Source of the DNA: Sulfitobacter sp. M05
GTDB lineage: Bacteria; Pseudomonadota; Alphaproteobacteria; Rhodobacterales; Rhodobacteraceae
Direction: 5' to 3'
Assembly (NCBI RefSeq): GCF_029285175.1
Contig: NZ_JABEDH010000002.1
Span: 1,054,001-1,118,000, forward strand
DNA length: 64,000 nt
Position numbers and translations under genes: made by a program. Shown one piece after another: positions 27,140 to 57,492 of this stretch (positions are counted from its first letter, which is position 1; every line of letters starts with the position of its first letter). The notes below the pieces were generated by a model. It saw only the letters and a program-made list of their open reading frames with translations. It was not told the DNA's origin and did not search any database.

Positions 27140-27179
27140 CGGGACCTTAACGATTTTTACATAATTCGGATTACCGGAA

Positions 27180-28058: not shown

Positions 28059-28206
28059 GAATAAAACTTTCAGAAAATAAAATGTTCTGTACTTGGGAAA
28101 GTCTAGGCCATGGTGGCCGTCGGCGTCAAAACCGTTGTGACCGGTGCCCGTGTCGTATACCTTGGAAACAATATATTTAATGAACTACTTTTTGAAAGGA
28201 GGAGAT

Positions 28207-28767: not shown

Positions 28768-28807
28768 ACGCGCGCTGCACCATTATTTGGGCTGACTGGA
28801 TTGACCT

Positions 28808-30994: not shown

Positions 30995-31049
30995 GCGCGG
31001 CCTGTTATTGCACCCGACCTTAACGGTGAATTGCGTGTTCGCAGTCTCA

Positions 31050-31066
31050 CCCTTTGGGCGAAAGGG
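31050..31066. terminator. Weak hairpin between convergent ppkA and pppA
   Basis: CCCTTT pairs with AAAGGG around a five-base loop in the 106-base gap between the two stop codons. There is no T run on either strand, so it may only be a weak or Rho-assisted end. It is the only stem seen at this junction. Confidence 0.3.
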
Positions 31067-31100
31067 AATGCGTGATGTCTGAGGTTAAACCGGAAAAGGG

Positions 31101-31817: not shown

Positions 31818-32497
31818 GTGATGGGCCTCGCTTCGCGCCACAAGGGGGCATTCAGATCAAAAAGGGCGCGCGATTGATGGGCATCAGGCATCCCGTCGCA
31901 AACCATAGCGCGCCGTGTATCATCCACAAGAGTGGTCCACAAACAGGGGGCCGCCATGCCAGTGCCCACCAGCCCTGCGGCAAGCGCGGGCGCGGTGCCC
32001 TGAAAGTCGGCAGGGCTAAGCACCAATGCGTTTCCTACCCTGCGCACGGGTGTATAGGGTGGCGGCGCGGGAGGGCGAATTTCCGTCAGTGCCGCGGCCA
32101 GTCGATCCCGGTCCATCCCGTCATCGAGACAGGAAAGCGCAAGGTCCTCAAGCCGTTCAAAGGTTGTATCCTGTGTCAGATGGTCAAATGCTGCCGGCCC
32201 TTCGTGATCCAGCGCGGCCATCAAGGCCAGCGGGAAACGCCGCCCGACACGATCAACCGAGGGCATCACAATGCCCAACACCTTGGTGGCCCCCGCAACC
32301 CCGGGTGACAGCGTAAAACGCCAGATCGGGGCAGACATATATTGGTCATCCCAAGCGCCGCCGCCCGCTTGCGCCGCGGTCATCATCGCGCCCTGCAACC
32401 AGTCATCCCACACCCTGACAAACCCCTGCGGGGTGTTCAGGTGAAAGAAATCGCCCAAGGCGGGCATCTTTCCGAAGGCACCGAAACCCTGCCCCAT
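31814..32497 (-). CDS. tagF: T6SS-associated protein TagF
   Basis: TagF is a cytoplasmic post-translational repressor of T6SS in Pseudomonas and Agrobacterium, acting on the Fha protein. The 227 residues start with FGAFGKMPALGDFFHLNTP, followed by WDDWLQGAM and the SAPIWRF-LSPG segment, which are diagnostic of the TagF/ImpM family. Its start overlaps the tssM stop by one base (TAATG), so translation is coupled. In some species TagF is fused to PppA; here they are separate but overlap by four bases. Confidence 0.92.
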   Translation of the reverse strand: MGQGFGAFGKMPALGDFFHLNTPQGFVRVWDDWLQGAMMTAAQAGGGAWDDQYMSAPIWRFTLSPGVAGATKVLGIVMPSVDRVGRRFPLALMAALDHEGPAAFDHLTQDTTFERLEDLALSCLDDGMDRDRLAAALTEIRPPAPPPYTPVRRVGNALVLSPADFQGTAPALAAGLVGTGMAAPCLWTTLVDDTRRAMVCDGMPDAHQSRALFDLNAPLWREARPIT

Positions 32498-38895: not shown

Positions 38896-40365
38896 CTATT
38901 TTAACTTTTCGAGCTGGTCTTTATATGCCCGCGCAAATTCGCGGCTGAACAGTTCGTGAAAATCATTCTCGGCCTGATCTGCGATCTGGCCATACATTTT
39001 TTCGTATACTTCCCAATAGCGGGCTTTTTTGCCTTTTAATAGATCACTAAAGCTGCCGCCGGTTTCAATCTGCGCGCCCAACACCTCGGGATCAAGCTTG
39101 GCCAGAATACCTTTTAATGCGGCTTCCATGCCGGTCACCATGGCGACCTCATGTGCTTTGATATCGTTCAGCGCTTGTTCGGTTGCGGTTTCCGACCCAA
39201 GATAGCCGCGCGATTTCGGTTTGATCAACGCCTCGATTGCCTGATCCGGACTGATCGAGAATTTCAACGGATTGTTGCCACCCGAACTGATCATCGTCTG
39301 TTCAATGCGAAACTCGGATTTGATCGAAGTGCGCGTCATCAGGATTTCACGCAGGCCGGTGATCATGGTGCGCATGACCCGCCCCATACGGCCCATAGAG
39401 GTGTGTAAATCTTCGTCCGGAATTTCCAACCCTTCGACGTCAAGCGCATCGAAGAACGCGCGTGCGGCGGCCTGATCACCTGTTGCAATCACCTGTTGCG
39501 CAGTCCGGTCTGTCGTGGCCGGTGGGGCCGTGCTGTCGTCTTTGCCAGCGGTGGGTGGCTTTGTCGGGTCGGTGTCCGGTTGTGCCACAGCAGACGGTGC
39601 CGCCTCAGGCGGGGCGGGAACCGGTTTCTGGGTGGTCACAGGTTCCGGTTTTGCCACCGGCTCGGGCTTGGAAGGGGACAGCAGATCATCGTCCCAATCA
39701 TCCGGGATCACCGCAGGCCCGCTGGAATGCGCCGGGCGGAAACTGTCACTGCCGCTGGTGTTGTGCATCGCCTGACTGGGCCCCAGATCATCGTTCAACC
39801 CGTCGGAGGGTTTGGCAAAAAACGGGTCTTCCTCTTCGCCCAAAGGTGGCAGAAGGTCGTCGATGGGGTCTGCCGTGTTAATCTGGCTTGGCCCTTTTGG
39901 TCCTTCGGGTGACCCCAGCAGATCATCAAGGAAATCACCGCCCGGCCCGACATCATCCATCAGATCCAGCGGATCAGGCGCATTATCCGCCTGCCCGTGC
40001 GACACTTGGTTATGGCCTACCGGGTCAGGGATCGGGGCGGCCAGTGCCTCGGTAATCTCGACCAGTAATTCGTAGCTGCCAACAGACAGGATATCACCGT
40101 TGTTAATCGGCGTAGGAATGCGGCCCAATGGGGTTTTGGAATAGTTCAAAAAGGTGCCGTTGGTGGAAAAATCAACCAGCACGACATTGCCGTTGTGGTC
40201 TTCGATCACACAGTGACTTTTGGACAGCTGGCGTTCGGGATCGGGCAAGACGATGTCATTGGCTGGCCCCCGTCCGATACTGAGGGATCCGCCCATAGGC
40301 ATCTGCATCGGACCAACATCACCGGGCATTGTGCCCGAAGACTGGAAAGAAAGTTTAACCGGCAT
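38896..40365 (-). CDS. tagH: T6SS FHA-domain protein TagH (Fha)
   Basis: This 489-residue cytoplasmic scaffold reads phosphothreonine. The FHA domain is residues 15-100, with GRGPANDIVLPD (Arg32), LSKSHC (Ser48, His51) and STNGTFLN (Asn69), the phosphothreonine-binding set. The middle (120-330) is acidic and disordered, with DFLDDLLGS, DPIDDLLPPL and WDDDLLS motifs, and then a Pro-rich part. The C-terminal 170 residues form the T6SS FHA-associated domain (MGRVMRTMITGLREILMTRTS). The start at 40365 (MPVKLSFQSS) is used because an upstream Met would overlap the PAAR gene and lacks homology. The acidic LDxLL motifs recur in the TssB/TssC-like fusion upstream. Confidence 0.92.
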   Translation of the reverse strand: MPVKLSFQSSGTMPGDVGPMQMPMGGSLSIGRGPANDIVLPDPERQLSKSHCVIEDHNGNVVLVDFSTNGTFLNYSKTPLGRIPTPINNGDILSVGSYELLVEITEALAAPIPDPVGHNQVSHGQADNAPDPLDLMDDVGPGGDFLDDLLGSPEGPKGPSQINTADPIDDLLPPLGEEEDPFFAKPSDGLNDDLGPSQAMHNTSGSDSFRPAHSSGPAVIPDDWDDDLLSPSKPEPVAKPEPVTTQKPVPAPPEAAPSAVAQPDTDPTKPPTAGKDDSTAPPATTDRTAQQVIATGDQAAARAFFDALDVEGLEIPDEDLHTSMGRMGRVMRTMITGLREILMTRTSIKSEFRIEQTMISSGGNNPLKFSISPDQAIEALIKPKSRGYLGSETATEQALNDIKAHEVAMVTGMEAALKGILAKLDPEVLGAQIETGGSFSDLLKGKKARYWEVYEKMYGQIADQAENDFHELFSREFARAYKDQLEKLK

Positions 40366-40373
40366 ACCTGACG

Positions 40374-40685
40374 CTAACCTCCGATCAGAACAGTGGGGCA
40401 ACAGGGCGGTATCATCATGCCCCCGCAAGCGACATTATCGGTAACCCGCGCCGCAGGCAGGAAATTGACCAACACGGTAGCAGAGCCTTTCACAATCGGA
40501 TGCGGCACGCCAAGGGGCGACATATCCGTCATCCGGGCGGCAGGCAGAAAGTTGATCAGGACCGTCGGACAGCAGGGCGTCAGGATTGGCATCGGCACCC
40601 CGGGCGGCGGCACCGGCGGCGCAGGAGGGGGGGCAGGCATCAGGCACAGATGCATATCCGTCATCCGGGCGGCGGGTAATGTCAT
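40374..40685 (-). CDS. PAAR-domain spike-tip protein
   Basis: PAAR proteins sharpen the VgrG spike and can carry effectors. This 103-residue protein has two nearly identical LPAARMTDM segments and a third LPAARVTDN, separated by Pro/Gly-rich parts and two CCPTVLI segments. Its size is just a minimal PAAR domain with no attached toxin. It overlaps the stop of the preceding gene by four bases (ATGA). The stretch of six prolines in PAPPPAPPVPPPGVP is unusual. Confidence 0.85.
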   Translation of the reverse strand: MTLPAARMTDMHLCLMPAPPPAPPVPPPGVPMPILTPCCPTVLINFLPAARMTDMSPLGVPHPIVKGSATVLVNFLPAARVTDNVACGGMMIPPCCPTVLIGG

Positions 40686-41296
40686 GGTGTCGCCTCCTCC
40701 ATCTTGTCCTTGTTTTCCATCCGCCCGTTTCCGCCGCGGGCGATGTCGACGGCACGGTCAATCAACATCTGGCCATACTCCTCAAACCTATCAGAGTTTT
40801 TGTCCAACGCTACGATATTCATGGCAAAAGCACTGGTTTCCGCGGCCCCAGCCGGTGCCGGATACTCTGCCAGATCTGCCGGCCCGAGGGTGCCATCGGA
40901 ATAGACGACCGACAGGGCGATATTCACGGTGTCATCGTCAATATAGGCCTCGTCCATCGACAGGCGGGCACGTTCGCGGTTCTCCTCAGTGGGTTTGAAC
41001 ACCCAATCCTCGGATGCGGTCAGCGACTTGGGGTCGTTCTTTGACTTTGGCCCGACATAGTCCCGCGCGGCCATACAGGCCCACCAAACCCGTTCGCGCG
41101 GTGGCAAAAGGATGGACAGCAGGCGGATCAGATCAATCATCGCGCCTTTCTCATCCAGTTCTTCCAGCACCACATCAGGTAGGGCAGCGACGGGTGCGGT
41201 AATAGGTGTATCGAGCCGGGTGTTCGCCATGGACAGCAACTTTGCCGCCGGCTCTTTTGGCACTTTCACCATATTTGTGAATCGATTTCCCATCAT
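40682..41296 (-). CDS. T6SS-linked protein of unknown function (DUF6931-like)
   Basis: This 204-residue cytoplasmic protein has no signal or membrane segment. It resembles the DUF6931 family, proteins found beside VgrG and PAAR genes, through the central segment LLPPRERVWWACMAARDYVG. This assignment is from memory of the family and should be treated as tentative. The position between vgrG and the PAAR gene is where spike-loading adaptors are usually encoded, so a chaperone/adaptor role is possible. No ADP-ribosylating, nuclease or lipase motif was seen. Confidence 0.7.
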   Translation of the reverse strand: MMGNRFTNMVKVPKEPAAKLLSMANTRLDTPITAPVAALPDVVLEELDEKGAMIDLIRLLSILLPPRERVWWACMAARDYVGPKSKNDPKSLTASEDWVFKPTEENRERARLSMDEAYIDDDTVNIALSVVYSDGTLGPADLAEYPAPAGAAETSAFAMNIVALDKNSDRFEEYGQMLIDRAVDIARGGNGRMENKDKMEEATP

Positions 41297-41302
41297 TCCG
41301 CC

Positions 41303-43402
41303 CTAGTTAATCTTCGTCAGTGAGCCCTTCAGGGTCAACAACCCCGAAGCTTGTGCGGTGACCAAAGGCGCTTCCATTTTTGCGGTCCCCGTCCCCTTGA
41401 TAGCGACGCCGGCCTGGGTGATTTCAATCGAACTTCCCCCCACCTTAAGCGTGATCTTCTGCATCGCCTCCATCGTAATCGTCGTGGCCGCTTTGACGTT
41501 GATCTTGCCCGCATCGGCATCAACACTGATGTTCCCGCTTTTGACCTGAACGGATTTGTTGCCGGTATCGACAACCTCTGAATAATTTCCGGTCCGTACC
41601 GTTTCGGTCATGTTGCCCTCGACAATCAGGTCCAGCGTGCCGGTGTCCACCGTTTCCAGTTTGTTGCCTTCCTGAACCATCTCGGTCACGTCCTGCTTAA
41701 CAGTTTGCAACAGACTGCCGGCTGCGACTGAATGGGCATCAGGGGCAACGTTCACGCCATCATCACCGATGGTGATTTGTGCGCTATCCTTAACAACCAT
41801 TTGGTAGTCTTTTTGTGACTGAAAATGCGTGTACTCCTTGCCGGCATCATCTTCGAACACCAGCGCATTGTAATCGGTTTCACCGCCACTCGGCGACGTC
41901 CGGGTCATCAGGCCGGTGCGGGTCGGTTTCTGCGGATCGACATAGGGCGGCATCTTGTCCTTGTTATACATCATTCCGGTGACAATCGGGCGGTCGGGAT
42001 CGCCGTCTTCGAATTGTACCACAACTTCCTGACCAATGCGCGGGATCGACAAGAGACCCCAATTGTTGCCGGACCATTGGGTCACAACCCTGATCCAGCA
42101 AGAGGCCGTGTCGTCTGGCGGATTGATCCTGTCCCATCGGAACCGGACCTTGATCCGGCCATACTCATCCGTATGTATTTCCTTGCCTGCCGGTCCGACG
42201 ACCTCGCCGATCTGGATGCCTGGGATTTCCGGCCAAGGCGTCGTAAAAGGCGCGCGGAATTGTTTGACCTTGGCCACCGCGCCAAAGGTAAAGGAATAAT
42301 CGTTTTTGATTTCCTCATCGATGTTGATGTTCTGGGGACGCAGCGCCAGCCAGACCTCATTTTCCTGTTTCTTCATCTCGTCGGAATCAAGGATCGTGTG
42401 TTCCGCCTCGGTGATCAGATAATCGGTGTTATTTGCGTCTTCGGGATGCTCGGAAAGCTTGAACAGGAAACCGGTGCCAAAGTGGCGCACGTCACCTGCG
42501 CCCCTATACAAAAGGTGCTGGATCGCATCGGCCTCTACCCGCACGCGGGTACGTGTGTCGCCCAGACGTTTTTCTCCGCGATAGTGCCCCGGCAGATCGT
42601 AGTATTCCTTTTCTTTGTACTGATGGTTGCCCTTGGGCATACTGGTGGTTTCCATCTGGCGCACAGAGGGCTTCTCAAAGTCATAATCCGCCAGACTGAC
42701 CTTGCCGCGTGTCACACTGTTTGCCGCCGCCCATTCGCTGATGGTCATCTGAGTTTTTGTGTCACTGCCATCGCGCGGCTTGAACTTCAGCTCCGCTTCA
42801 TCATCGATCACCTTATGAGCAGAGACACCGTCGCAAATGATCAGTTTTTCGTTTTTCATATGCGCGTCGGAATGGTCAAAAAAGTAATACATCCCCTCTT
42901 CTTCCATCAGCCGCGACAGAAAAGCGAAATCGGTTTCACGGTACTGCACGCAATAGTCACGCTTTTCATAGGTTTCCGATGTCTTGATCTGGAAATCCGA
43001 GAACCCGTGTTTGCCCAGCACGTCCTCAATGATTTCCTTGACCGACATTTCCTGAAACACCCGTGTGTTGCGTTCGATGGTCAACATCCAGAACCAGGGC
43101 CGGATCTGCGCAACATAGTGGTCGTCGCCGTCGCGCATTCCCATGCCTTCAACCGAAATGCAGGTGCCCGTAAACATCCGTCCGTTTTCGCCCGCACTGT
43201 CCTGTTGCACATGAACGGTCATCAGTTGGCCGACAAAATCGGCTAGTTTCACATTTGTCTTGCGGGCCAGAAATTCGATTGTGGTCTCCGTAAGGGTTGA
43301 AAGTTTCTCTTTGACCACGGCCTGTTTCAGCCGAAGCTTTTTGGTTGTGTACGTCCCCGACATCCATGTCGAAGCGTCGTCTCTTGGTTTGCTAATCGTC
43401 AT
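41303..43402 (-). CDS. vgrG: T6SS spike protein VgrG (TssI)
   Basis: VgrG forms the trimeric spike at the end of the Hcp tube. The 699 residues comprise gp27-like domains (about 1-380, with YCVQYRETDFAFLSRLMEEEG), the gp5 OB fold (DEYGRIKVRFRWDR and WGNNWGLLSIPRIGQEVVV-like text), and a C-terminal beta-helix needle with repeated SVQVKSGNISV-type strands. The chain ends just after the needle (LLTLKGSLTKIN), so no effector domain is fused to it. GAGGAA six bases before the ATG supports the start. The PAAR gene two genes downstream would cap it. Confidence 0.95.
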   Translation of the reverse strand: MTISKPRDDASTWMSGTYTTKKLRLKQAVVKEKLSTLTETTIEFLARKTNVKLADFVGQLMTVHVQQDSAGENGRMFTGTCISVEGMGMRDGDDHYVAQIRPWFWMLTIERNTRVFQEMSVKEIIEDVLGKHGFSDFQIKTSETYEKRDYCVQYRETDFAFLSRLMEEEGMYYFFDHSDAHMKNEKLIICDGVSAHKVIDDEAELKFKPRDGSDTKTQMTISEWAAANSVTRGKVSLADYDFEKPSVRQMETTSMPKGNHQYKEKEYYDLPGHYRGEKRLGDTRTRVRVEADAIQHLLYRGAGDVRHFGTGFLFKLSEHPEDANNTDYLITEAEHTILDSDEMKKQENEVWLALRPQNINIDEEIKNDYSFTFGAVAKVKQFRAPFTTPWPEIPGIQIGEVVGPAGKEIHTDEYGRIKVRFRWDRINPPDDTASCWIRVVTQWSGNNWGLLSIPRIGQEVVVQFEDGDPDRPIVTGMMYNKDKMPPYVDPQKPTRTGLMTRTSPSGGETDYNALVFEDDAGKEYTHFQSQKDYQMVVKDSAQITIGDDGVNVAPDAHSVAAGSLLQTVKQDVTEMVQEGNKLETVDTGTLDLIVEGNMTETVRTGNYSEVVDTGNKSVQVKSGNISVDADAGKINVKAATTITMEAMQKITLKVGGSSIEITQAGVAIKGTGTAKMEAPLVTAQASGLLTLKGSLTKIN

Positions 43403-43453: not shown

Positions 43454-46400
43454 TCAAAGATCGGCCAGCAGCGCAGCCAGTTCGGCATCCATGTGTTCAT
43501 CATCAATAATATCTTCGTCAGTATCATCCGCATCGAGATCAAAACCTGACAGCAAATCGTCCAGATCATCGTCATCCCCAGCGGCATCGTTGTCGTGTCC
43601 GTCCGCACCACCGGATGTGGCTTTGGGCGGTTGTGGTGCAGAGGGCGGCGGCGGTTGCTCGCCACTCCAGGGGCCCAAAATATCGCCCCCTCCCAACGAC
43701 TGGAAAGAAGCCAGCCGGATTTCGTCACGCCCCTTGATCGACACCACAGGCAGGTAACCCCGCCCTAAAACGGTCTCGACCTTGTCCAGTGTCAGGTTGC
43801 GTTCGGTACAGGGCAATGCCACCTGATCGCCAAAACGGTCCAACACAAAATGGTAGGGCATATCGCCAAGCGACATGATTTTCCCTAACGCCATCGACGG
43901 GCCATTCTCCTTGAAGGAGCGCGCCAGCAAAATGGCAACCAGAACAACCGGGTTCCCCCATAGCATACCAGACAATCCGGCACTTTGGGTGAATTCTTCA
44001 AAATCAAACTCGTATATAGGTTCTGTTTTGGCACCATATGGCCGGCGCATCAAGAAGCGCGGTGTGGCCAACGCCAGATGCCGCGCCTCAGGCATCGCCC
44101 GCAACCTGTCCCATTCGGCAGCCACCAGCGGATGACGGTCCGGTTTCGCCGTTTCGATAAAACCCGGCGTGATGGCGGCAAAGAACGGCGCATCGATATG
44201 TGCCGCAACCCGTGCGATACGGCCCAAAAGCTGCGCATGGGGTGGTGTTTCCTCAAAGGTGTACATGCCGATTAAGGCAGAATAGGCTCCACGCCCGAAC
44301 TCCTCGTCCATTGGCCCTTCGGTCAACAGCCGAGCAAGACCGCTGTTTGACAGGTCATCCGATTGCGTCAGGTCTGCCGCGATTTCCTCGGCTGAAATAT
44401 CGTACAGCACCACCTCAAGCGTATCATCGGTCTCCACACTGCGGGCGATCAGATCAAGCGCGCGCCACTGCGCTTCGACCGACTGGAACTCGGGGTGATG
44501 CAGGACCATGCGCATCGCCCCCGACAGGGCATCATCGACCGCGCCCGCCATTGCGGTCGCATCTGGATCAGGCAGTTTGCGAATATGCGGCCCCACAACA
44601 CGGGCCATCAGTTCATCCACTGGCGAAGGCTGTGCCAAGGTCTTTTGCGTATCGCCAATCAGCTGTTGAAAATCACTTAACTTGAGATCAGCGCGTACCG
44701 TGTTGCCGCCAGATGTCGCCCGCGCCGGTGCAACCGCGCGCCCGTGCTGTTCGCCCCAAGCGACCAGCGATTTGGCCGCGTTTTCCGCTGTGCCGCCCGC
44801 GCCCAATTGCGCCTTGAGCCCCTTCAGCGCCGCAAACAGTTCAACATTTTCATAAAGCTCGTCCGGATGCAGATCGTCCAAGCCACCCAGCTTGACCTCG
44901 ACCCCGGCGCCATCCTTGCCAATGGGCAGAACAAGTGTGGTGGCAAACCCTTCGATGACATCCTCAACTGTATCTGTATCCAAGATAATCGGCTTGCGTG
45001 CCGCAAGTGTGTCACCGACCTCGATCAGCCCATGCGCCGCACGTCCGGTAAAATCCCCAAGCAAGGCGATACGAAAGCGTTTGCGTTCCAGTTTCTGCGC
45101 ATCAGGGCGTTCACCACTCATGGTGCCAAAGGCCAGTTCGGGCTCTGCGCTGAGGGTCGCCTTGGCCGTCTTGACCTCTGTTTCAGCTGGCATATCGCTC
45201 TTTCCCTCTTCTGCTGTCGCCGCCTCGGCATCTTTGTCCTCAGAGACTTCAGTGTCCAAACCATCAAGCAGGGCGTCCAGATCGTCTCCCTGCGCCGCAG
45301 GCTCCTCATGCAGAGTTTCGGGTGTCACGTCGCCGGAGGGTTCGCTTTCAACCCGGTCGGGCTGTGGCACTATGGGTGCAGGCTCTGTCGTGGCTGCGTC
45401 ACTCTGTTCCGGCGTGTCATCTTCTTCTGCCTCGATCATGTCGTCTTGCAAGCCAGCAAGCAGCGCATCCAGATCATCAACTGCAGGGGGCGCTGGCTCC
45501 TCTTCCTGCGGCTCCTCAAGTGCCCCCAATAGGGCGTCAAGATCATCGTCTTCCTCGTCTGGCACGTCAGGCTGCAAATCCGCGAGGATCGCTTCCATCT
45601 CCAGAGCGGCCTGCGCTTCCTCTTCGGCGGCAAGGGCCTCCGCTGCGTCAGGCTCCGTTCCCTCTGTCAGCGCAGGAGGGGCCGCTTCAACCTTCGGTGC
45701 CTCAGAAACAGGGTCGACCAGCGCTGGTGTATCAGGGTCCGCGTCGGGGGCCGATGGTTCGACATCCGCCAACAGATCCCCGACATCCTCATCAGCGGCC
45801 TGCGCAGTATCGTCACCGCCCAGATCATCCAACAATGCCTCCAGATCGTCCGGCATGGTCTCCACCGCTTCAGGTGCGTCAAGGTCAGACAGGATGGCAT
45901 CCAGATCGTCGGCTTCCTCGATCTGCTCGGGCGCTTCCAAACCGGCAAGGGTCGCTTCGATATCGTCCGTTTCCGGCGCATCTTCGACGCGTTCGAGATC
46001 GGCGAGGATGGTGTCTGAGGTGTCCTCGGCGGCGTCTTCTTCTACCGCCTCAATTGTGGCCAGCACATCAGTTGCGTCCGGCGTGGTCTCCACCGCGCCA
46101 GGTGCGTCAAGGTCAGACAGGATGGCATCCAGATCGTCGGCTTCCTCGACCTGCTCGGGTGCTTCCAAACCGGCAAGGGTCGCTTCGATATCGTCCGTTT
46201 CCGGCGTATCCTCGACGCGTTCAAGCTCAGCTAGGATGCTGTCGGAGGTGTCCTCAATCTCTTCGACTTCGATGGCTTCGATGTTGGAGAGGATGTCATC
46301 GGCCTTCGGGCCCGTATCGGCCTCAGGCTGCTCTGCCATACGCAGCGCATCGAGGGCCTCTGTCGCATCATCGGCAAGGGTGCCCCCCTCTGCGCCGATT

Positions 46401-46906
46401 TCCACCGTACGGAGGGCATCCAAAGCTGCAGCGCTGTCGTCGGCGGTTGGACTGTCGGGAACAGCCATCGTGCGCAGACCATCCAGAACAGAACCGCTGG
46501 TGTCCTCTTCCGGCTCAGGCAGTTTGATCGCCCGCAGCGCATCCAGCGCATTTGCCTGCTCATCAATTTCAGGCACAGAGTCAGATGTGGCACCGTCCAT
46601 ATAGGCGAGCAGGTCGGCGAATTCGGGACGGTCCACCAGTAGCTGCCGCAGGGTGTCAGCGCGCGCGGCCTTTGCATTGGGATCAAGGTCGGTCAGATCG
46701 CTAAACCCTTCCACATCGATTTCGAAGAACCCGCGGTCCTCAATAGAACGGGCATCAATCTGTGCAGGATCGCAAAGGTCGCTGAGAACCCCCAGAACGA
46801 AGGGCAGCTGTGCCGGTTTGACAGGTTCGTAAAGCGCCAATTCGTAGGCTGTATGCGCACGGGGTGCCGCATTGCTGTGGATGAATTTCTGCGCCTTGCC
46901 CGCCAT
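43454..46906 (-). CDS. TssB-like/acidic repeat/TssC-like fusion protein of the T6SS
   Basis: This is a 1150-residue cytoplasmic protein. Residues 1-108 match the start of TssB (AQKFIHSNAAPRAHTAYELA, LPFVLGVLSDL, FEIDVEGFSD), side by side with the cluster's own TssB. Residues 109-600 are very acidic and disordered, with DLDAIL or DLDALL motifs at 258, 334, 354, 455, 478 and 542 and a duplicated 76-residue unit. Residues 605-720 are a second TssB/VipA-like domain (FRIALLGDFTGRA). Residues 760-1085 are TssC-like (LMARVVGPHIRKLPDPD, PRFLMRRPYGAKTEPIYEF). The acidic tail ends LDDLLSGFDLD. Canonical tssB and tssC also exist here, so this is an extra sheath-related protein, perhaps a sheath end, a ClpV partner or a regulator. 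Function unknown. Confidence 0.85.
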   Translation of the reverse strand: MAGKAQKFIHSNAAPRAHTAYELALYEPVKPAQLPFVLGVLSDLCDPAQIDARSIEDRGFFEIDVEGFSDLTDLDPNAKAARADTLRQLLVDRPEFADLLAYMDGATSDSVPEIDEQANALDALRAIKLPEPEEDTSGSVLDGLRTMAVPDSPTADDSAAALDALRTVEIGAEGGTLADDATEALDALRMAEQPEADTGPKADDILSNIEAIEVEEIEDTSDSILAELERVEDTPETDDIEATLAGLEAPEQVEEADDLDAILSDLDAPGAVETTPDATDVLATIEAVEEDAAEDTSDTILADLERVEDAPETDDIEATLAGLEAPEQIEEADDLDAILSDLDAPEAVETMPDDLEALLDDLGGDDTAQAADEDVGDLLADVEPSAPDADPDTPALVDPVSEAPKVEAAPPALTEGTEPDAAEALAAEEEAQAALEMEAILADLQPDVPDEEDDDLDALLGALEEPQEEEPAPPAVDDLDALLAGLQDDMIEAEEDDTPEQSDAATTEPAPIVPQPDRVESEPSGDVTPETLHEEPAAQGDDLDALLDGLDTEVSEDKDAEAATAEEGKSDMPAETEVKTAKATLSAEPELAFGTMSGERPDAQKLERKRFRIALLGDFTGRAAHGLIEVGDTLAARKPIILDTDTVEDVIEGFATTLVLPIGKDGAGVEVKLGGLDDLHPDELYENVELFAALKGLKAQLGAGGTAENAAKSLVAWGEQHGRAVAPARATSGGNTVRADLKLSDFQQLIGDTQKTLAQPSPVDELMARVVGPHIRKLPDPDATAMAGAVDDALSGAMRMVLHHPEFQSVEAQWRALDLIARSVETDDTLEVVLYDISAEEIAADLTQSDDLSNSGLARLLTEGPMDEEFGRGAYSALIGMYTFEETPPHAQLLGRIARVAAHIDAPFFAAITPGFIETAKPDRHPLVAAEWDRLRAMPEARHLALATPRFLMRRPYGAKTEPIYEFDFEEFTQSAGLSGMLWGNPVVLVAILLARSFKENGPSMALGKIMSLGDMPYHFVLDRFGDQVALPCTERNLTLDKVETVLGRGYLPVVSIKGRDEIRLASFQSLGGGDILGPWSGEQPPPPSAPQPPKATSGGADGHDNDAAGDDDDLDDLLSGFDLDADDTDEDIIDDEHMDAELAALLADL
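45861..46258 (-). repeat. Two tandem copies of a 228-base unit inside the TssB/TssC-like fusion gene
   Basis: The block beginning TCCACCGC at 46089 recurs at 45861 (period 228 bases, 76 codons). About 165 bases of each copy are nearly identical, with around ten differences. The protein copies are residues 219-274 and 295-350. Such units can expand or shrink by recombination. Confidence 0.8.
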
Positions 46907-46914
46907 CGAAAATC

Positions 46915-47772
46915 CTAGCCCCCCTTCTTGCCGTTGGCCGCATTGATCTCGGCACGCAGGGCTTTGACCTCTTCCATCAACGCCATGACATTGCGGTCCA
47001 CGGTGTCGGTCTCGTCACGCACCAATTGGCGCAGGTTGTCGAACTCGGCCTCGGTTTCTTCCTCCACCGCGTCTTGCATCGTGTTGACCAGCAGACCGAT
47101 GAACAGGTTCAGAACCGAAAACGCGGTGATGATGATAAAGGGCACAAAGAATGCCCATGCCGAGGGGAATTCCTCCATCACCGGGCGCACGATCCCCATT
47201 GACCAGCTTTCCAATGTCATAATCTGGAACAGGGAATACAGTGAGCGACCCAAGGTGCCGAACCAATCGGGGAAGGCCGTGCCATACATCAAGGTCGCCA
47301 TGACGCCAAAGACGTAGAACACGATAGAAATCATTACGATAACCGCGCCCATGCCCGGCAAGGCATCCAGCAGTGCCTGAACGACGGCCCGCATCTGGGG
47401 CACAACCGACAGCAGGCGCATGGCACGGATCACCCGCAAGCCGCGCAGCGCTGAAAGGCCTTCCTGACTTGGCAACAGGCCAAGGCCAACGACCATGAGG
47501 TCAAAAATATTCCATGCGTTTTTGAAGAACGCCATGCGGTAGGCGAAGAACTTGAGCAGCAATTCAGCGACAAAGATGACCAGTACAAGATTGTCGACAA
47601 CAGATAAAATGCCGCCGATCCGATCCATCAGATAGCCCGATGTCGACATGCCAAGGGTGATCGCATTGAAGATGATAATGCCCAGAATGGTGTTTTTGAA
47701 CCGGTCACCTTCAACCAGATCATAGACCCGCGCACGGGCTGCGCTCATCTTTGGTTTGTCCAGTTCTGCCAA
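46915..47772 (-). CDS. Bacterial voltage-gated sodium channel (NaChBac/NavAb type)
   Basis: This 285-residue inner-membrane protein has six transmembrane helices. S4 (about 107-128) carries arginines 110, 113, 116 and 119 at three-residue spacing. The pore segment reads TLESWSMG (186-193), the same filter as NavAb and typical of sodium channels. S6 follows (LNLFIGLLVNTMQDAV), then an acidic C-terminal neck and a coiled coil (about 245-275), as in known tetramers. The start codon is TTG with GGAG seven bases upstream. It lies inside the T6SS operon, 101 bases after clpV and eight bases before the TssB/TssC-like fusion. Its presence there has no accepted explanation. Confidence 0.93.
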   Translation of the reverse strand: MAELDKPKMSAARARVYDLVEGDRFKNTILGIIIFNAITLGMSTSGYLMDRIGGILSVVDNLVLVIFVAELLLKFFAYRMAFFKNAWNIFDLMVVGLGLLPSQEGLSALRGLRVIRAMRLLSVVPQMRAVVQALLDALPGMGAVIVMISIVFYVFGVMATLMYGTAFPDWFGTLGRSLYSLFQIMTLESWSMGIVRPVMEEFPSAWAFFVPFIIITAFSVLNLFIGLLVNTMQDAVEEETEAEFDNLRQLVRDETDTVDRNVMALMEEVKALRAEINAANGKKGG

Positions 47773-47873: not shown

Positions 47874-50582
47874 TCAGTTGAACGAATAGGTAAAGTTGCT
47901 ATCGGTCACGTCGATTGAAACCTTGTCGATGGACTTACCCTCCATCATGCGGCGCAGGAACTCTGCCGAGATATCCGGCAACATGGTGTTGGTCACAATC
48001 GCGTCGATCATGCGCCCGCCGCTTTCCAGTTCCTGACACCGGTCCACAATCAGGTCGACAACCGCATCTGAGTATTCGAACGGCACATCATGTGTGCTTT
48101 CGACGCGTTTCTTGATCCGGCCCAATTGCAGCTTGGTAATCTCTGCAATCATATGTGGGCTAAGCGGATAATAAGGGATCGTCACCAAACGGCCCAAAAG
48201 GGCGGCGGGAAAGATCTTCAGCAAAGGGTCACGCAGGGCTTTGGCAATGCCCTCGGGTTCGGGCAACAGATCGGGGTCACTGCACAGGTCCATGATCAGA
48301 TCGGACCCGGCATTCGACGTCAGCAGGATCAGCGTGTTCTTGAAATCAATTGTGCGGCCCTCGCCGTCTTCCATCACGCCCTTGTCAAACACCTGAAAGA
48401 AAATCTCGTGGACATCAGGGTGGGCTTTTTCCACCTCGTCCAACAATACGACAGAGTATGGTTTGCGCCGCACCGCTTCGGTCAGCACGCCGCCCTCGCC
48501 ATACCCGACATAGCCGGGAGGCGCCCCTTTCAGGGAGCTGACGCTATGCGCTTCCTGATATTCGGACATGTTGATGGTGATGACGTTCTGTTCGCCGCCA
48601 TAAAGCACCTCAGCCAGCGCCAATGCGGTTTCCGTCTTACCAACACCAGAAGTCCCGGCCAGCATGAAAACACCGATCGGTTTGTTAGGGTTATCAAGGC
48701 CGGCACGGCTGGTCTGGATACGTTTGGCGATCATCGCCATTGCATGATCCTGCCCGATGACCCGTTTGCCCAGATGTTCCTCAAGGCTAAGGACCGTGGC
48801 CAGCTCGTCCGACACCATGCGCCCGACAGGAATGCCTGTCCAATCGCCGACCACGCTGGCGACCGCCTGTTCATCGACAATCGGCAGGATCAGCGGGCTT
48901 TCGCCCTGTGCCTCATGCAGTTTGGCATTTGCCGCTTTAAGCTTTTCCATCACCTCGGCGCGGGCCGCATCGTCCAGCGCGTCATCGCCGCCTTCGGGGG
49001 CAATTTCGGCCCCCTCTTCCACTGGTGCGCCACCTGCGCGCAGTTGCGACCGGAGGTCCAGAATTTCGGCAACGATCTCTTTTTCCACATCCCATGCCGC
49101 TTGCAGTCCGGTCAGACGTTCCGCCACTTCGGCTTTCTCGGCCTCTACTTTGGCGCGGCGCTCGCTGACATCATATCCGGCGGTTTCGTCCCGCCCAATG
49201 ATCTCAAGCTCTGTTTCCAGCGCTTCGATCCTGCGTTGCGCATCATCCACTTGTGCAGGCACCGCATGTTGACTGACCGCTACGCGCGCGCAGGCCGTAT
49301 CCAGAACGCTCACAGATTTATCGGGCAGTTGCCGGGCCGGAATGTAACGGGCCGAAAGCGCAACGGCTGCCTCGATCCCCTCGTCCAGCACCTGCACCTT
49401 GTGGTGGTTTTCCAGCATCGACGCGATGCCGCGCATCATCATGACGGCCTTGGGCACATCCGGTTCATCGACCTGCACCACCTGAAAGCGGCGGGTCAGC
49501 GCAGGGTCTTTTTCAATGTATTTCTTATATTCGGCCCATGTGGTCGCGCCGATCGTGCGCAGCGTGCCCCGCGCCAGCGCCGGTTTCAGCAGGTTCGCCG
49601 CATCACCCGTGCCCGCGGCACCGCCTGCCCCGACAAGCGTGTGCGTTTCATCCACAAACATGATGATCGGTGTCGGGCTTGATTGCACCTCGTCAATGAC
49701 CGAGCGCAGGCGGTTTTCAAACTCGCCCTTCATACTGGCACCTGCCTGCAACAGCCCCACATCCAGCACCAGCAGGCGCACATCCTGCAAGGCGGGCGGC
49801 ACATCACCGCGCGAAATGCGCAGGGCAAACCCTTCGACCACTGCGGTTTTGCCGACACCCGCCTCACCTGTCAGGATCGGATTGTTCTGACGACGACGCA
49901 TCAGCACGTCGACAATCTGGCGAATTTCCTCGTCTCGGCCAACAATCGGGTCAATCTCGCCATTGCGGGCTTGTTCTGTCAGGTCAGTACAATATTGCTC
50001 AAGCGCCTCACCCTTGCCCATTTGGGCCGGTGACATGGCATCTGATGCCTCGCCGGGGACCGCGCCGCCACCCGTGGTTGATCCGTCCTGCGCGCCCATG
50101 CGCTCTTCCGGAGAGCCATCAGTCGCCTCATGGAAATTCTCGGCCAGATCATCATGTTTGATCTTGGCAAGCTCGGGCGAAATGCCGGTCAGGATGTTGC
50201 GCAGGGCCGGCGTTTTCAACATGCCCAGCAGCAAATGTCCCGTGCGCACATTGGAAGAGCTGAACAGCAGCGATCCGAAAACCCAGCCGCGCTCCATTGC
50301 ATCCATCAGATGGTCTGACAGATCGGAAATCGCAGAGGCACCGCGCGGCAGCCCATCCAGATTGCGGGTCATTTCAGCGGCAATCTTGCCCACATCCAGA
50401 TCATAGTGATCGACAATCCGGTGCAGATCACTGTCTTGTCCCTGCAAAATCTGGTGCATCCAATGCACGACTTCAACATAGGGGTTGCCACGCATTTTGC
50501 AAAAGACGGTGGCACCTTCTACGGCTTTATATCCAAGACTGTTCAGCTTACCGAACAATGCGACTCTGCTAATCTCGCTCAC
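47874..50582 (-). CDS. clpV: T6SS sheath disassembly ATPase ClpV (TssH)
   Basis: ClpV removes and recycles contracted TssB/TssC sheath. The 902 residues have the ClpV N-terminal domain (1-160), two AAA+ modules (first Walker A GEAGVGKT at 239-246; second GTSGVGKT) and a shortened middle domain rather than the ClpB propeller. The start codon is GTG, with GAGGGG eight bases upstream. It differs clearly from the ClpB at 12401. Downstream lie the sodium channel and the TssB/TssC-like fusion, so all three may be co-expressed. Confidence 0.95.
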   Translation of the reverse strand: MSEISRVALFGKLNSLGYKAVEGATVFCKMRGNPYVEVVHWMHQILQGQDSDLHRIVDHYDLDVGKIAAEMTRNLDGLPRGASAISDLSDHLMDAMERGWVFGSLLFSSSNVRTGHLLLGMLKTPALRNILTGISPELAKIKHDDLAENFHEATDGSPEERMGAQDGSTTGGGAVPGEASDAMSPAQMGKGEALEQYCTDLTEQARNGEIDPIVGRDEEIRQIVDVLMRRRQNNPILTGEAGVGKTAVVEGFALRISRGDVPPALQDVRLLVLDVGLLQAGASMKGEFENRLRSVIDEVQSSPTPIIMFVDETHTLVGAGGAAGTGDAANLLKPALARGTLRTIGATTWAEYKKYIEKDPALTRRFQVVQVDEPDVPKAVMMMRGIASMLENHHKVQVLDEGIEAAVALSARYIPARQLPDKSVSVLDTACARVAVSQHAVPAQVDDAQRRIEALETELEIIGRDETAGYDVSERRAKVEAEKAEVAERLTGLQAAWDVEKEIVAEILDLRSQLRAGGAPVEEGAEIAPEGGDDALDDAARAEVMEKLKAANAKLHEAQGESPLILPIVDEQAVASVVGDWTGIPVGRMVSDELATVLSLEEHLGKRVIGQDHAMAMIAKRIQTSRAGLDNPNKPIGVFMLAGTSGVGKTETALALAEVLYGGEQNVITINMSEYQEAHSVSSLKGAPPGYVGYGEGGVLTEAVRRKPYSVVLLDEVEKAHPDVHEIFFQVFDKGVMEDGEGRTIDFKNTLILLTSNAGSDLIMDLCSDPDLLPEPEGIAKALRDPLLKIFPAALLGRLVTIPYYPLSPHMIAEITKLQLGRIKKRVESTHDVPFEYSDAVVDLIVDRCQELESGGRMIDAIVTNTMLPDISAEFLRRMMEGKSIDKVSIDVTDSNFTYSFN

Positions 50583-53484: not shown

Positions 53485-53982
53485 CTACCCCACCCTGTCG
53501 AGCGAAATCTCACCCGTGGTTACGTCGACCTTGCTGCGCAGATACAGTTCAAGCGGCACCGGCTGAGCCCACATGTCTGCATGGATATCAAATGCAATCT
53601 GTGTCTCTCCCTTGGCCTGTTCGGTGCGCAGTTCGACGGCTGTCGACCCCGCGATGATCCGCGGTTCATGTACCGAAATGGCGTTCAGAATGGACTTGCG
53701 GATCAGCTCTGCGCGCACGGATGTCGAATATTCCCCCGCCACCTCGCGCACGCCATAATTTAAGACCGATTTCGAAACACTCGGGTATTTCTCAGGGTCC
53801 AGCCTGCCGCCAAGGCTATGGGTGTTCAACAGCCATGAAAGATCCCGTTTGATGATCTCGCGCAGGCGCGTGATGTCGATGGCGCGATGGGCACGGCTTT
53901 CTTGCTTTTGGGTTGGTTCCTCGTCGGTTAGCCGGTCCAGAAGGGACGGCTGCAACCGTTCAGCAAGCATCTTATCAGCCAT
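53485..53982 (-). CDS. tssE: T6SS baseplate protein TssE (gp25-like)
   Basis: TssE is the gp25-like lysozyme-fold baseplate protein that starts sheath polymerisation. The 165 residues from the ATG at 53982 (MADKMLAERLQPSLLDRL) fit the usual length; the frame continues upstream but that part has no homology. The start overlaps the tagJ stop by eight bases. The conserved EPR motif of gp25 proteins is present in SVHEPRIIAG. DLSWLLNTHS near the N-terminus is also typical. Confidence 0.93.
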   Translation of the reverse strand: MADKMLAERLQPSLLDRLTDEEPTQKQESRAHRAIDITRLREIIKRDLSWLLNTHSLGGRLDPEKYPSVSKSVLNYGVREVAGEYSTSVRAELIRKSILNAISVHEPRIIAGSTAVELRTEQAKGETQIAFDIHADMWAQPVPLELYLRSKVDVTTGEISLDRVG

Positions 53983-54799
53983 TCTGTGCAGCCTCTTCCG
54001 GCTCGTCCGGGCCATGATCAAAGACCAGTTCGCGCACATCAAGCAGGGCGACGTCATCCTGATCAGTTGCAAACAACCGCTGGCCAACTCCGACAAACGT
54101 CTCGCCACCGGCATCCATCCAATTGGTTGAACGGGAAAGTTTCTCAGCATCGCCACCGTTTTCCGGCGTTCCTGCATAACGGGTCGGGATCAGGGCAACC
54201 ACTTCGCCACCATTGCGCAGGGTCACTGTTGCGGCGGTCCAGACCGCGTCGCGCAAATCGGCGGGTTCCTCGATCGCCAGCTTTGAAACCTGTGCAAACG
54301 GCAGCCAGAAATAGCGCCCGTTGATCACAATTTCCAAGACCGGCCCCATGCGCATGTCCGCATCCGCAATCCATTCGAACGCCGCACCATTCACCGTTCC
54401 TGAACTGGCCGGTGCCTGATCAAATGCCTGTGTGCGCAGCGCTGCAGCCTCGTCTGGTTTGCCCTGTGCCAGCATCTTTTGGGCCTCAATCAACAGGGCA
54501 AGCCATGGCTCTGGCTCGCCAAAAACCATCGGCTCTTTTTCGCCTTTAAACACCTTTTCGCGGTAGACCTCGCAAATGATCCCCTCGCGATAGGTCTGGG
54601 CCATCATCAAAGCTAGCGGGTCCATTTCACCGCTCAGCTTCAACTGGTTGATCGCCCGTTTCCAATCCCCCAGCACACACAAGAGTTGAAACAGGAAAAT
54701 CCGCAGCTTGGCATCCGCAGGTTCGGCACGCACCCGGTCCTGCAAGGCGGTAAGAGTGGCAGCCAGATCGCCGGATTTAAGATGTTCTTCGGGCGTCAT
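53975..54799 (-). CDS. tagJ: T6SS accessory protein TagJ (ImpE/HsiE-like)
   Basis: TagJ binds the N-terminus of TssB and ClpV in some T6SS and modulates sheath turnover. This 274-residue protein has N-terminal helical repeats (LRIFLFQLLCVLGDWKRAINQL) followed by the ImpE core (FEWIADADMRMGPVLEIVINGRYFWLPF). GGAGG eight bases before the ATG supports the start. It lies between hcp and tssE. Confidence 0.9.
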   Translation of the reverse strand: MTPEEHLKSGDLAATLTALQDRVRAEPADAKLRIFLFQLLCVLGDWKRAINQLKLSGEMDPLALMMAQTYREGIICEVYREKVFKGEKEPMVFGEPEPWLALLIEAQKMLAQGKPDEAAALRTQAFDQAPASSGTVNGAAFEWIADADMRMGPVLEIVINGRYFWLPFAQVSKLAIEEPADLRDAVWTAATVTLRNGGEVVALIPTRYAGTPENGGDAEKLSRSTNWMDAGGETFVGVGQRLFATDQDDVALLDVRELVFDHGPDEPEEAAQNG

Positions 54800-55482: not shown

Positions 55483-56979
55483 TCAGGCGCCTTTTTCAGA
55501 AGGGAGCTTGGACACAAGCCGCAATGAAACCGAAAGACCTTCCAACTGGTAATGTGGGCGCAGGAAGAACTTCGACGTATAATATCCGGGATTGCCTTCC
55601 ACCTCTTCGACAACAACTTCTGCTGCTGCGAGCGGCTTCCGCGCCTTCTCATTTTCCGACGAAATGTCGGCATTGAAATCAACGTAATTGTTGATCCACT
55701 CTTGCAGCCACCGTTCCATGTCCTGACGGCTTTTGAACGAACCGACTTTATCGCGCACCATGCATTTCAGGTAATGTGCAAAACGGCATGTGGCGAACAG
55801 GTAAGGCAGGCGAGCTGCAAGATTTGCGTTGGCCGTCGCGTCCGGGTCATCATACTCTGCCGGCTTATGCAGGGATTGAGCGCCCATAAAGGTGGCGACG
55901 TCCGTGTTTTTCCGGTGGATCAGCGGCATCATGCCATTCTTGGCAAGCTCCGCTTCGCGCCGGTCGTCGATGGCAATTTCTGTGGGACATTTCTGATCCA
56001 CGCCACCGTCTGTTGTTGGAAAAGTATGCGAAGGCAGGTTTTCCAACGTACCGCCGGATTCAACGCCACGAATGCGCGAACACCAGCCGTATTCCTTGAA
56101 TGAACGGTTAATATTAACCGCCATGCCGTAGGCCGCGTTGATCCAGCCGTACTTGCTGTGATCCGAGCCATCAGTGTCTTCTTCAAATGCAAAGGCCTCG
56201 ACAGGCTCGGTTTTCGCACCATAAGGCAAACGCCCCAGAAAGCGCGGCATCGCAAGGCCGACATATTTGGAATCCTCGCTTTCACGCAGGGATTTCCACG
56301 ACGCATATTCCGGTGTCTGGAAAATCTTGGTCAAATCGCGCGGGTTGCTCAGCTCTGACCAGCTGTCCATCTGGAACAATTCGGGCTTGGCCCCTGTGAT
56401 CAATGGCGCATGGCCAGCCGCGGCAATCTTGGCCATCTCGCCCAACAGCTCAACATCCTGCGGGCTGTGGTCAAAATGGTAATCCGCCACCAGAGAACCG
56501 TAAGGTTCGCCGCCCAGTTGCGAGAACTCTTCCGTATAAAGCTTCTTAAAGATCGGCGATTGATCCCATGCGGTACCTTTGAATTTGCGCAGGGTCTTGT
56601 GCATCTCTTTCTTGGAAATGCTCATGAACCGGATTTTCAGGTTCTCATCTGATTCAGTGTTGTTGACCAGATAATGCATCCCGCGCCACGCGCTTTCCAT
56701 TTGCTGGAACTCTTCGTGGTGCAGGATCAGGTTCACCTGCTCTGTCAACTTTTTGTCAATCTCGGCGACGATGCCTTCGATAGACCGCAGGGCATCGTCA
56801 GAAATCAGTGCGGTATTGCTCAGCGCTTGTTCCGCCAGTGCTTTGACCGCAGATTCAACCGCCGTCTTGGCCTGATCGGACTTTGGGCGGAATTCCTTTT
56901 GCAGCAGGCTTTCGAACTCAGAGGAGCCAAAAGCCGTTTCACCGCCAGCTGCTTCTACTTGGACGTCTTCTTCGGCCAT
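55483..56979 (-). CDS. tssC: T6SS sheath large subunit TssC (VipB)
   Basis: TssC and TssB make the contractile sheath. The 498 residues match the VipB family: QMESAWRGMHYLV, FRMS-like sections, PRFLGRLPYGAKTEPVEAF and the C-terminal CRFAHYLKCMVRDKVG. Near the N-terminus (19-29) SEFESLLQKEF resembles the short helix of VipB that ClpV binds. GAGGAGGA precedes the ATG. It lies three bases from tssB. Confidence 0.96.
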   Translation of the reverse strand: MAEEDVQVEAAGGETAFGSSEFESLLQKEFRPKSDQAKTAVESAVKALAEQALSNTALISDDALRSIEGIVAEIDKKLTEQVNLILHHEEFQQMESAWRGMHYLVNNTESDENLKIRFMSISKKEMHKTLRKFKGTAWDQSPIFKKLYTEEFSQLGGEPYGSLVADYHFDHSPQDVELLGEMAKIAAAGHAPLITGAKPELFQMDSWSELSNPRDLTKIFQTPEYASWKSLRESEDSKYVGLAMPRFLGRLPYGAKTEPVEAFAFEEDTDGSDHSKYGWINAAYGMAVNINRSFKEYGWCSRIRGVESGGTLENLPSHTFPTTDGGVDQKCPTEIAIDDRREAELAKNGMMPLIHRKNTDVATFMGAQSLHKPAEYDDPDATANANLAARLPYLFATCRFAHYLKCMVRDKVGSFKSRQDMERWLQEWINNYVDFNADISSENEKARKPLAAAEVVVEEVEGNPGYYTSKFFLRPHYQLEGLSVSLRLVSKLPSEKGA

Positions 56980-56982
56980 GGG

Positions 56983-57492
56983 TTATTCCTCCTCTTTCGC
57001 GTCAGGCTTTGGCTGTGCTGCCAATGTCTTAAGCAGCGCCGGATCCTGCATGATCTTGCTGATCAGATCCTCGGCACCGGATTTACCATCCATATAGGTC
57101 ATCAGATTGCTAAGCTGGGTGCGCGCATCCAGCAGCTCGGCCAACGGTTCGACCTTGGCCGCGATGGCGGCAGGTGAAAAATCATCCATGCTGTTGAATG
57201 TGATATCGACGGCCATATTGCCCTCACCTGTCAGCGTATTGGGCACGGTAAAGGCGGCGCGCGGGGCGATCGATTTCATCCGGTCATCAAAATTGTCGAC
57301 ATCAATCTCAAGGAACTTGCGATCCGCGACGGCGGGCTGTTCTACCTCGGATTTTCCGGCAAGGTCACTCATCACACCCATGACGAACGGCAGCTGCACT
57401 TTTTTCTCTGCGCCATACAGTTCGACATCGTATTCGATCTGGACGCGGGGGGCCCTATTGCGAGCAATGAATTTCTGGGAACTACCGGCCAT
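56983..57492 (-). CDS. tssB: T6SS sheath small subunit TssB (VipA)
   Basis: The 169 residues begin SSQKFIARNRAPRVQIEYDVE and include LPFVMGVMSDLAG and FLEIDVDNFDDRM, the standard VipA start. The C-terminal helical part (ELLDARTQLSNLMTYMDG) is present. AAGGAG eight bases before the ATG supports the start. It directly precedes tssC. Confidence 0.96.
   Translation of the reverse strand: MAGSSQKFIARNRAPRVQIEYDVELYGAEKKVQLPFVMGVMSDLAGKSEVEQPAVADRKFLEIDVDNFDDRMKSIAPRAAFTVPNTLTGEGNMAVDITFNSMDDFSPAAIAAKVEPLAELLDARTQLSNLMTYMDGKSGAEDLISKIMQDPALLKTLAAQPKPDAKEEE

What the first reader, a model, noticed from the sequence alone, without database searches (positions are those of the whole stretch)
43454..46906. 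A TssB-like/acidic-linker/TssC-like fusion coexists with normal TssB and TssC
One 1150-residue protein joins a TssB N-terminus (1-108), an acidic repeat region of about 490 residues, a second TssB/VipA-like domain (605-720) and a TssC-like core (760-1085). The cluster's own tssB and tssC are intact, so this is an additional sheath-type subunit. The long linker would hang outside or inside the sheath. It could define the end of the sheath, control its length or recruit ClpV. The gene order clpV, channel, fusion, vgrG suggests dedicated expression with ClpV and the spike.
Basis: partly seen in the sequence, partly recalled or inferred. Interest (0 to 1): 0.85.

Follow-up and report, generated by a model that had tools for sequence, protein, structure and literature searches.

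The report
Truncated pseudo-sheath protein of T6SS (TssCL)
This is a real, conserved accessory protein of a bacterial toxin-injecting machine that stitches parts of the two sheath proteins together but lacks the part that builds the sheath; it was reported in 2022 under the name TssCL, its job is still unknown, and relatives of its core turn up in more bacteria than that report found.

Summary
Window 43454-46906 (-) is one open 1150-aa ORF: TssB-like N-terminus (aa 1-108), about 480 aa of acidic repeats, a second TssB-like body (about 605-720) and a TssC-like domain (788-1071), beside intact tssB and tssC. It is not new: a 2022 paper (PMC9515649) describes the family as "TssCL" in roseobacters, function unknown. 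What I add: (1) the C-terminal half lacks the gp25-like domain PF18945 and the handshake strand, so it is a heterodimer body in one chain without the lattice domain; (2) seven of 50 complete relatives are core only, and core-only relatives occur in a betaproteobacterium and other families; (3) a C-terminal motif is in 59 of 59 cores and a helix at the TssC N-terminal-helix position in 56 of 59; (4) the N-terminal TssB is optional and decayed in the window copy, though its TagJ-anchor residues remain. Best reading: a sheath-associated pseudo-subunit working with TagJ/ClpV, not a normal sheath subunit; mechanism confidence about 0.4.

The parts
43454..46906 (-). TssCL-like fusion gene, 1150 aa
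46583..46906 (-). aa 1-108: N-terminal TssB-like segment, about 30 aa missing inside relative to relatives and to the local TssB
46859..46891 (-). aa 6-16 QKFIHSNAAPR: counterpart of the HsiB1 peptide bound by TagJ/HsiE1; K7, F8, R16 (HsiB1 K9, F10, R18) invariant in the 24 full-length fusions aligned
45140..46582 (-). aa 109-589: acidic repeat linker, predicted disordered with short helices (low confidence); 7 matches to [DE][LIVFMWA][DE]x[LIM][LM] against 0.37 expected in shuffles
44747..45094 (-). aa 605-720: second, diverged TssB-like body, without the N-terminal handshake strand
44654..44680 (-). aa 743-751 LSDFQQLIG: conserved predicted helix at the position of the TssC N-terminal (ClpV-type) helix (position judged by eye)
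43652..44554 (-). aa 785-1085: TssC N-terminal domain (PF05943); no PF18945 follows
43457..43630 (-). aa 1093-1150: acidic tail ending MDAELAALLADL
55483..56979 (-). tssC of the cluster, intact
56983..57492 (-). tssB of the cluster, intact
53975..54799 (-). tagJ (ImpE family), closest solved structure HsiE1, E 6e-84
47874..50582 (-). clpV (tssH), N domain closest to P. aeruginosa ClpV1, E 2e-64
46915..47772 (-). ion channel (PF00520) between clpV and the fusion
41303..43402 (-). vgrG downstream of the fusion

Best explanation
The protein is a member of the TssCL family: a sheath-derived accessory protein of an H1-like (TagJ-containing) type VI secretion system. Its C-terminal half is a TssB body and a TssC N-terminal domain in one chain, i.e. 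the middle and outer layers of a sheath heterodimer without the inner, lattice-forming domain 1 (shown by profiles and model). It therefore most likely does not polymerise as an ordinary sheath subunit but docks on the sheath or its base as a pseudo-subunit (inferred). In most complete relatives an N-terminal TssB, joined by a long acidic tether, would let it be built into the sheath next to real TssC and/or be held by TagJ through the conserved QKFI..N.APR peptide (inferred). The TssC-type N-terminal helix and the acidic LLxxL motifs in linker and tail would be bait for a sheath-processing partner, most simply ClpV or the TagJ-ClpV pair, so the protein would concentrate the disassembly machinery at the sheath (inferred, weakest step).
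For: Domain content and missing PF18945 in the window protein and in three relatives scanned, L114, L039, L085. Core model pLDDT 82.6, pTM 0.82; best match P. aeruginosa TssC1 5n8n_B, Z 26.9 over 304 residues, chain 63-402, and single-chain eCIS, phage and pyocin sheaths at Z about 13-17 whose alignments run from model residue about 15-23 to about 496. BLAST of the local TssC C-terminal domain against 59 cores: nothing below E 1.8. Handshake sheet made of TssB beta1 and TssC beta11-13 (PMC5807055). Synteny, counting only genes recognised by similarity to window genes: vgrG is next in 60 of 60 loci; channel or clpV is the one before in 50 of 50 with an upstream gene in view. C-terminal motif in 59 of 59 cores, LSxFxxL in 56 of 59, the other three with conservative changes. 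Among 19 cluster proteins the strict acidic-LL pattern hits only the fusion (linker 7, tail 1), TssC (1, EFESLLQKEF near its N-terminus) and TssK (1). TagJ close to HsiE1 and ClpV1-type N domain; TagJ present in 33 of 33 N-TssB loci where its place is in view, 7 more cut before it.
Against: The acidic-LL pattern was written after seeing the linker, and it has no match at all in 5 of the 49 complete relatives listed (L073, L074, L077, L079, L086). In P. [quoted passage not shown] A closely related T6SS lacks the protein (L103: clpV followed by vgrG), so the machine as such does not need it. N-TssB is missing in L094, L097 and seven core-only loci, although those core-only loci also have TagJ (5 of 5 in view), so tethering through TagJ is not universal. 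Three distant core homologues lack the acidic tail (L114, L122, L123), and two of these stand away from T6SS genes. The full-length model gives no confident fold for the N-terminal TssB (block means 27-38 for aa 1-70).
Confidence: 0.4

Rival explanations
1. Mosaic sheath subunit: the fusion is built into the TssBC lattice, through its N-terminal TssB, and marks the end or sets the length of the sheath; the linker hangs outside.
For: N-TssB is 69-81% identical to the same genome's TssB in L083, L095, L096, L098; 86% in Leisingera ANG-M7 by the paper. TssB and TssC pair in known T6SS sheaths.
Against: Window and L093 copies are only 33% and 39% identical to their own TssB, the window copy has lost about 30 aa of the body, and L094 and L097 have none; the C-terminal half lacks domain 1; total length varies from 570 to 1936 aa.
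Confidence: 0.25
2. Composite base ring: TssE is gp25-like, domain 1 only; the fusion core is domains 2-3 only. The two could complement each other into a first pseudo-sheath ring at the baseplate, like specialised sheath paralogues of extracellular injection systems (the last point recalled).
For: Complementary domain content; structural matches include sheath chains of AFP, PVC and PlPVC1 baseplate entries (6rao, 6j0n, 9qgl), though helical-sheath entries score alike; the gene lies next to vgrG, and next to tssK in L120 and tagH in L123. TagJ of short-TssA systems behaves like a baseplate component (PMC7896307, passages).
Against: No interaction evidence; a sister cluster with TssE does without the fusion (L103).
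Confidence: 0.15
3. Assembly chaperone or store: the core mimics half of the heterodimer and holds free TssB or TssC (or ClpV) until assembly.
For: TssB and TssC41 stabilise each other in Agrobacterium (PMC3702570, passages), so a binding mimic could buffer them; long linker of low predicted order.
Against: In the core the place of TssB is taken by the chain's own TssB-like body (inferred); no direct evidence.
Confidence: 0.12
4. Non-functional fusion left over from gene duplication.
For: The N-TssB of the window copy is degenerate.
Against: Core about 50-88% identical to the window's in 60 loci, with near-invariant motifs and fixed neighbours.
Confidence: 0.03

Closest known systems
TssCL of roseobacters (PMC9515649, Front Microbiol 2022)
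   Same: Two VipA domains and one VipB domain, separate tssB and tssC in the cluster; first VipA close to own TssB (86% in Leisingera ANG-M7), second VipA (26%) and VipB (31%) diverged.
   Different: Window copy is shorter (1150 aa against 1684) and its first VipA is degenerate (33% to own TssB). In the parts I read (abstract, found passages, all of section 12) the paper does not mention the missing PF18945, core-only relatives, the conserved motifs or core homologues outside Alphaproteobacteria.
TssC/VipB (TIGR03355)
   Same: PF05943 domain and fold (Z 26.9 to TssC1).
   Different: No PF18945; below the TIGR03355 cut-off (139.2 against 271.5 bits).
TssB/VipA (TIGR03358)
   Same: aa 1-79 46% identical to the local TssB; second TssB-like body.
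   Different: Neither TssB-like part in the window is a complete TssB; below the TIGR03358 cut-off (54.7 against 97.25 bits).
ImpD/TssC40 (second TssC of other Alphaproteobacteria)
   Same: Extra TssC-like protein in the cluster; not redundant and needed for Hcp secretion in Agrobacterium (PMC3702570, passages).
   Different: Three ImpD-type proteins read here continue into a TssC-like C-terminal part (by eye) and fall outside the fusion clade (with long-branch warnings). G205 and G544 each have two other TssC-type genes besides the fusion core (which of them is ImpD-type was not tested).

Membership tests
TssCL (PMC9515649) | Two VipA (PF05591) regions and one VipB (PF05943) in one protein | tested here: met
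   three PF05591 stretches and one PF05943; one search shows the N-terminal TssB matching HsiB1 in two pieces around the gap
TssCL (PMC9515649) | Coexists with separate tssB and tssC in the same cluster | tested here: met
TssCL (PMC9515649) | First VipA close to the cluster's own TssB (reported for ANG-M7; not stated as a criterion in what I read) | tested here: not met
   33% over 168 columns in the window; 69-81% in L083, L095, L096, L098. Filed as TssCL all the same because it is a description of one strain, not a definition
TssC sheath large subunit | PF05943 plus PF18945 C-terminal domain | tested here: not met
   PF05943 yes, no PF18945 at E<=1
TssB sheath small subunit | Full-length PF05591, above TIGR03358 cut-off | tested here: not met
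Sheath polymer subunit | Incorporation into or binding to the sheath | not testable with these tools
   Needs tagging or cryo-EM
TagJ ligand | TssB N-terminal peptide with K9, F10, R18 of HsiB1 | tested here: met
   K7, F8, R16 kept in the window and invariant in 24 aligned sequences; contacts from PMC4239648. Residues only; binding not tested
ClpV substrate or adaptor | Binding to ClpV | not testable with these tools
   Only motif resemblance

The most novel reading that the evidence does not exclude
An unrecognised T6SS component of wider range than TssCL: a single-chain TssB-TssC body without domain 1 that completes the gp25-like TssE into a first pseudo-sheath ring or TagJ-linked collar at the baseplate, and in Rhodobacterales gained a TssB-headed acidic tether carrying many copies of a ClpV/TagJ recruiting motif.
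Probability: 0.15. Interest if true: 0.75.

Novelty: new member of a known kind. Interest (0 to 1): 0.45.

Why it matters
The sheath is the motor of the type VI system and is normally made of two proteins only. A conserved third, sheath-derived protein that lacks the lattice domain would have to act on the sheath from outside or at an end, so it is a handle on how sheath assembly, stability or recycling is controlled in TagJ-type systems. The core-only homologues outside Alphaproteobacteria suggest that the trait is older or wider than the published TssCL, and the near-invariant C-terminal motif gives a short, testable binding element.

Tried and rejected
Considered and rejected: frameshift or misassembly (open frame in many genomes); identity with ImpD/TssC40; restriction of the family to Alphaproteobacteria (holds so far only for the long form). 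Tried without result: phrase search for a TssB-TssC fusion and for Rhodobacterales with TssB and TssC, zero papers each; 'TssCL' gives one paper; a further phrase search listed four papers, of which I followed only PMC9515649. That no later paper on its function is known to me rests, open-access full texts only. The full-length AlphaFold model is poor (pLDDT 54.0, pTM 0.47) and says nothing on how N-TssB packs. The tree of N-TssB against TssB does not resolve whether the fusion arose once (3 changes; 17 of 26 inner branches open). The root inside the fusion clade is unsure (stem 4.99, long-branch warnings), so whether core-only is ancestral or a loss is open. The TagH motif is suggestive and was not pursued. 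VIA-align lists no family other than sheath proteins in its 50 rows; that excludes nothing.

Rows and limits: the 69 rows include 9 loci (L001-L009) from the window's own genome and unnamed relatives, some of them near or exact copies of named loci; the counts of 60, 50 and 59 use L031-L092 only. L071 and L092 hold no fusion gene within the fetched DNA. L063 was left out of the 59 cores because its reference did not translate cleanly. L090's start was mis-set (shown as 1 aa); it counts among the 43 N-TssB forms, but is not used for lengths and is missing from the 49 rows listed. The genome-contig scan used six peptides of the window protein, two of them from the N-terminus and linker, so the share of core-only forms is not a census. 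In one search I fetched regions of six of the eight relatives with the fusion; G028 and G032 rest alone. A1 holds 39 of the 59 cores (under 88% identity to each other), A2 23 of the N-TssB forms, chosen for diversity. and 46 scored at most three candidates per genome.
Full report
What is there. The ORF at 43454-46906 (-) is 1150 aa and uninterrupted. Pfam finds VipA (PF05591, E 8e-17, three stretches) and the VipB N-terminal domain (PF05943, E 3e-42, aa 788-1071) but not the gp25-like C-terminal domain PF18945, which the cluster's own TssC has together with PF05943; the cluster's own TssB is a near full-length PF05591. Both NCBIfam sheath models hit below their cut-offs. phmmer against the PDB finds TssC1 of P. 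aeruginosa (5n8n_B, E 1e-36, aa 786-1071) and HsiB1 (4uqz_B, aa 4-69). The cluster resembles the H1 type: TagJ matches HsiE1 (E 6e-84), the ClpV N domain matches ClpV1 (E 2e-64), and TssA is 341 aa, which I take as the short form.

It is already in print. A 2022 study of squid symbionts (PMC9515649; [quoted passage not shown] It states that TssCL was not detected outside Alphaproteobacteria. A whole-word search for TssCL finds only this paper among 5.39 million open-access texts.

Anatomy. The C-terminal half (aa 590-1150), aligned with 39 relatives, gives a good AlphaFold model (pLDDT 82.6, pTM 0.82). VIA-align places TssC1 first (Z 26.9, rmsd 4.2, 304 residues, chain residues 63-402); after the T6SS sheaths come single-chain sheath proteins of eCIS, pyocin and phages (Z about 13-17) whose alignments begin in the TssB-like part and end near model residue 496 (Foldseek, best E 8e-17). 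So the half looks like one sheath body in one chain. In the P. aeruginosa sheath the lattice is held by a handshake sheet of TssC beta11-13 and TssB beta1 (PMC5807055, passages); that beta11-13 belong to the PF18945 part is my inference. The C-terminal half has no PF18945 (nor have L114, L039 and L085), and its TssB-like part starts after the beta1 region. A BLAST of the local TssC C-terminal domain against 59 cores gives nothing below E 1.8.

Relatives. Genome contigs gave 62 loci; in 60 the fusion gene is in the fetched DNA. Of these 60, 43 start with a TssB, 7 do not, 10 are cut by contig ends. The seven (L039, L073, L074, L075, L077, L085, L086) are 570-687 aa: core plus tail only. Among genes recognised by similarity to window genes, vgrG is next in 60 of 60 and the channel or clpV precedes in 50 of 50 with an upstream gene in view; unrecognised small genes can lie between, as in L121. 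The cores form one clade apart from TssC and ImpD (100/100). In 385 genomes of the class, 58 match the core profile, but only the window's own and G205 cover its TssB-like part. In 398 genomes of the phylum five pass E 1e-50: own, G544 and G748 cover the TssB-like part, G733 and G737 only the TssC part. The G544 copy sits beside tagH, tssK, tssL and tssM, and the same contig has two further TssC-type genes; within about 20 kb the G205 and G748 copies have no recognised T6SS neighbour. On plasmids, 23 of 435 records with a match cover 80% of the query: 22 bear roseobacter-type names (recalled as Alphaproteobacteria; one checked) and one is Eleftheria terrae, a betaproteobacterium, where the core-only gene follows tssK and ends in the same motif DMDAELAALLASLD. 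So the core is wider than the published TssCL. A related T6SS without the fusion also exists: in G035 (L103) clpV is followed by vgrG, and the genome has only a TssC-type match.

N-terminal TssB. In four genomes with both genes in view it is 69-81% identical to the genome's own TssB (L083, L095, L096, L098; the last over 130 aa), 39% in L093, 33% in the window, and absent in L094 and L097. The window copy lacks about 30 aa of the TssB body. It keeps the anchor residues of the peptide that TagJ/HsiE1 binds in P. aeruginosa: K9, F10 and R18 of HsiB1 (PMC4239648, passages) are K7, F8 and R16 here and are invariant in the 24 sequences aligned. The cluster's TagJ is close to HsiE1. TagJ is proposed to act at the baseplate in short-TssA systems (PMC7896307, passages). 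Against a strict link, core-only loci also have TagJ (5 of 5 in view).

Motifs. The C-terminal (D/E)L(A/D)ALLxxL is present in 59 of 59 cores, LSxFxxL in 56 of 59, three more being conservative variants. The latter lies where the TssC N-terminal helix would lie, and the local TssC has SEFESLLQKEF near its N-terminus (by eye). In the core homologues of G748 and G544 the same region reads SFLDSIMQETQ and SILDTMLAADR (by eye), like the LLDEII motif that ClpV recognises in V. cholerae (PMC4239648). The linker has 7 strict acidic-LL motifs against 0.37 expected in shuffles (maximum 3 of 200); the low-confidence full-length model shows it without a fold apart from short helices. The pattern was defined after seeing the linker, it is absent from 5 of 49 listed relatives, three distant cores lack the tail, and H1-type ClpV does not need the TssC helix in P. 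aeruginosa; the ClpV link is a lead only.

Verdict. Observation confirmed; interpretation partly supported; family known since 2022; function open. Most likely a sheath-associated pseudo-subunit working through TagJ/ClpV (0.4), with a mosaic sheath subunit (0.25) and a baseplate ring with TssE (0.15) as main rivals.

Noticed in passing
46915-47772 (-): A voltage-gated-type ion channel (PF00520) sits inside the T6SS cluster between clpV and the fusion; it is there in 40 of 49 related loci where clpV is in view upstream of the fusion (37 of 42 with N-TssB, 3 of 7 without). Its role in a T6SS is unexplained.
   Followed up: partly
38896-40428 (-): The linker of TagH (FHA protein) carries acidic DDLL-type motifs (for example DWDDDLL) like those of the fusion; a match of that type is in 24 of 56 complete relatives' TagH, mean 0.45 per protein against 0.03 in shuffles.
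   Followed up: partly
L120 31217-33316: In Eleftheria terrae six RebB-family R-body genes lie about 13 kb beyond the core-only homologue at the end of a T6SS cluster on a 784-kb plasmid.
   Followed up: no
G000 contig C14, about 25985-33129: The window's genome holds a second TssC-type gene with a ClpV/ClpB-type gene nearby, apparently a second T6SS; no fusion match there.
   Followed up: no
40682-41296 (-): A DUF6931 protein (PF22011) lies between vgrG and tagH; a relative follows vgrG in 60 of 60 loci among recognised genes. Function unknown.
   Followed up: no
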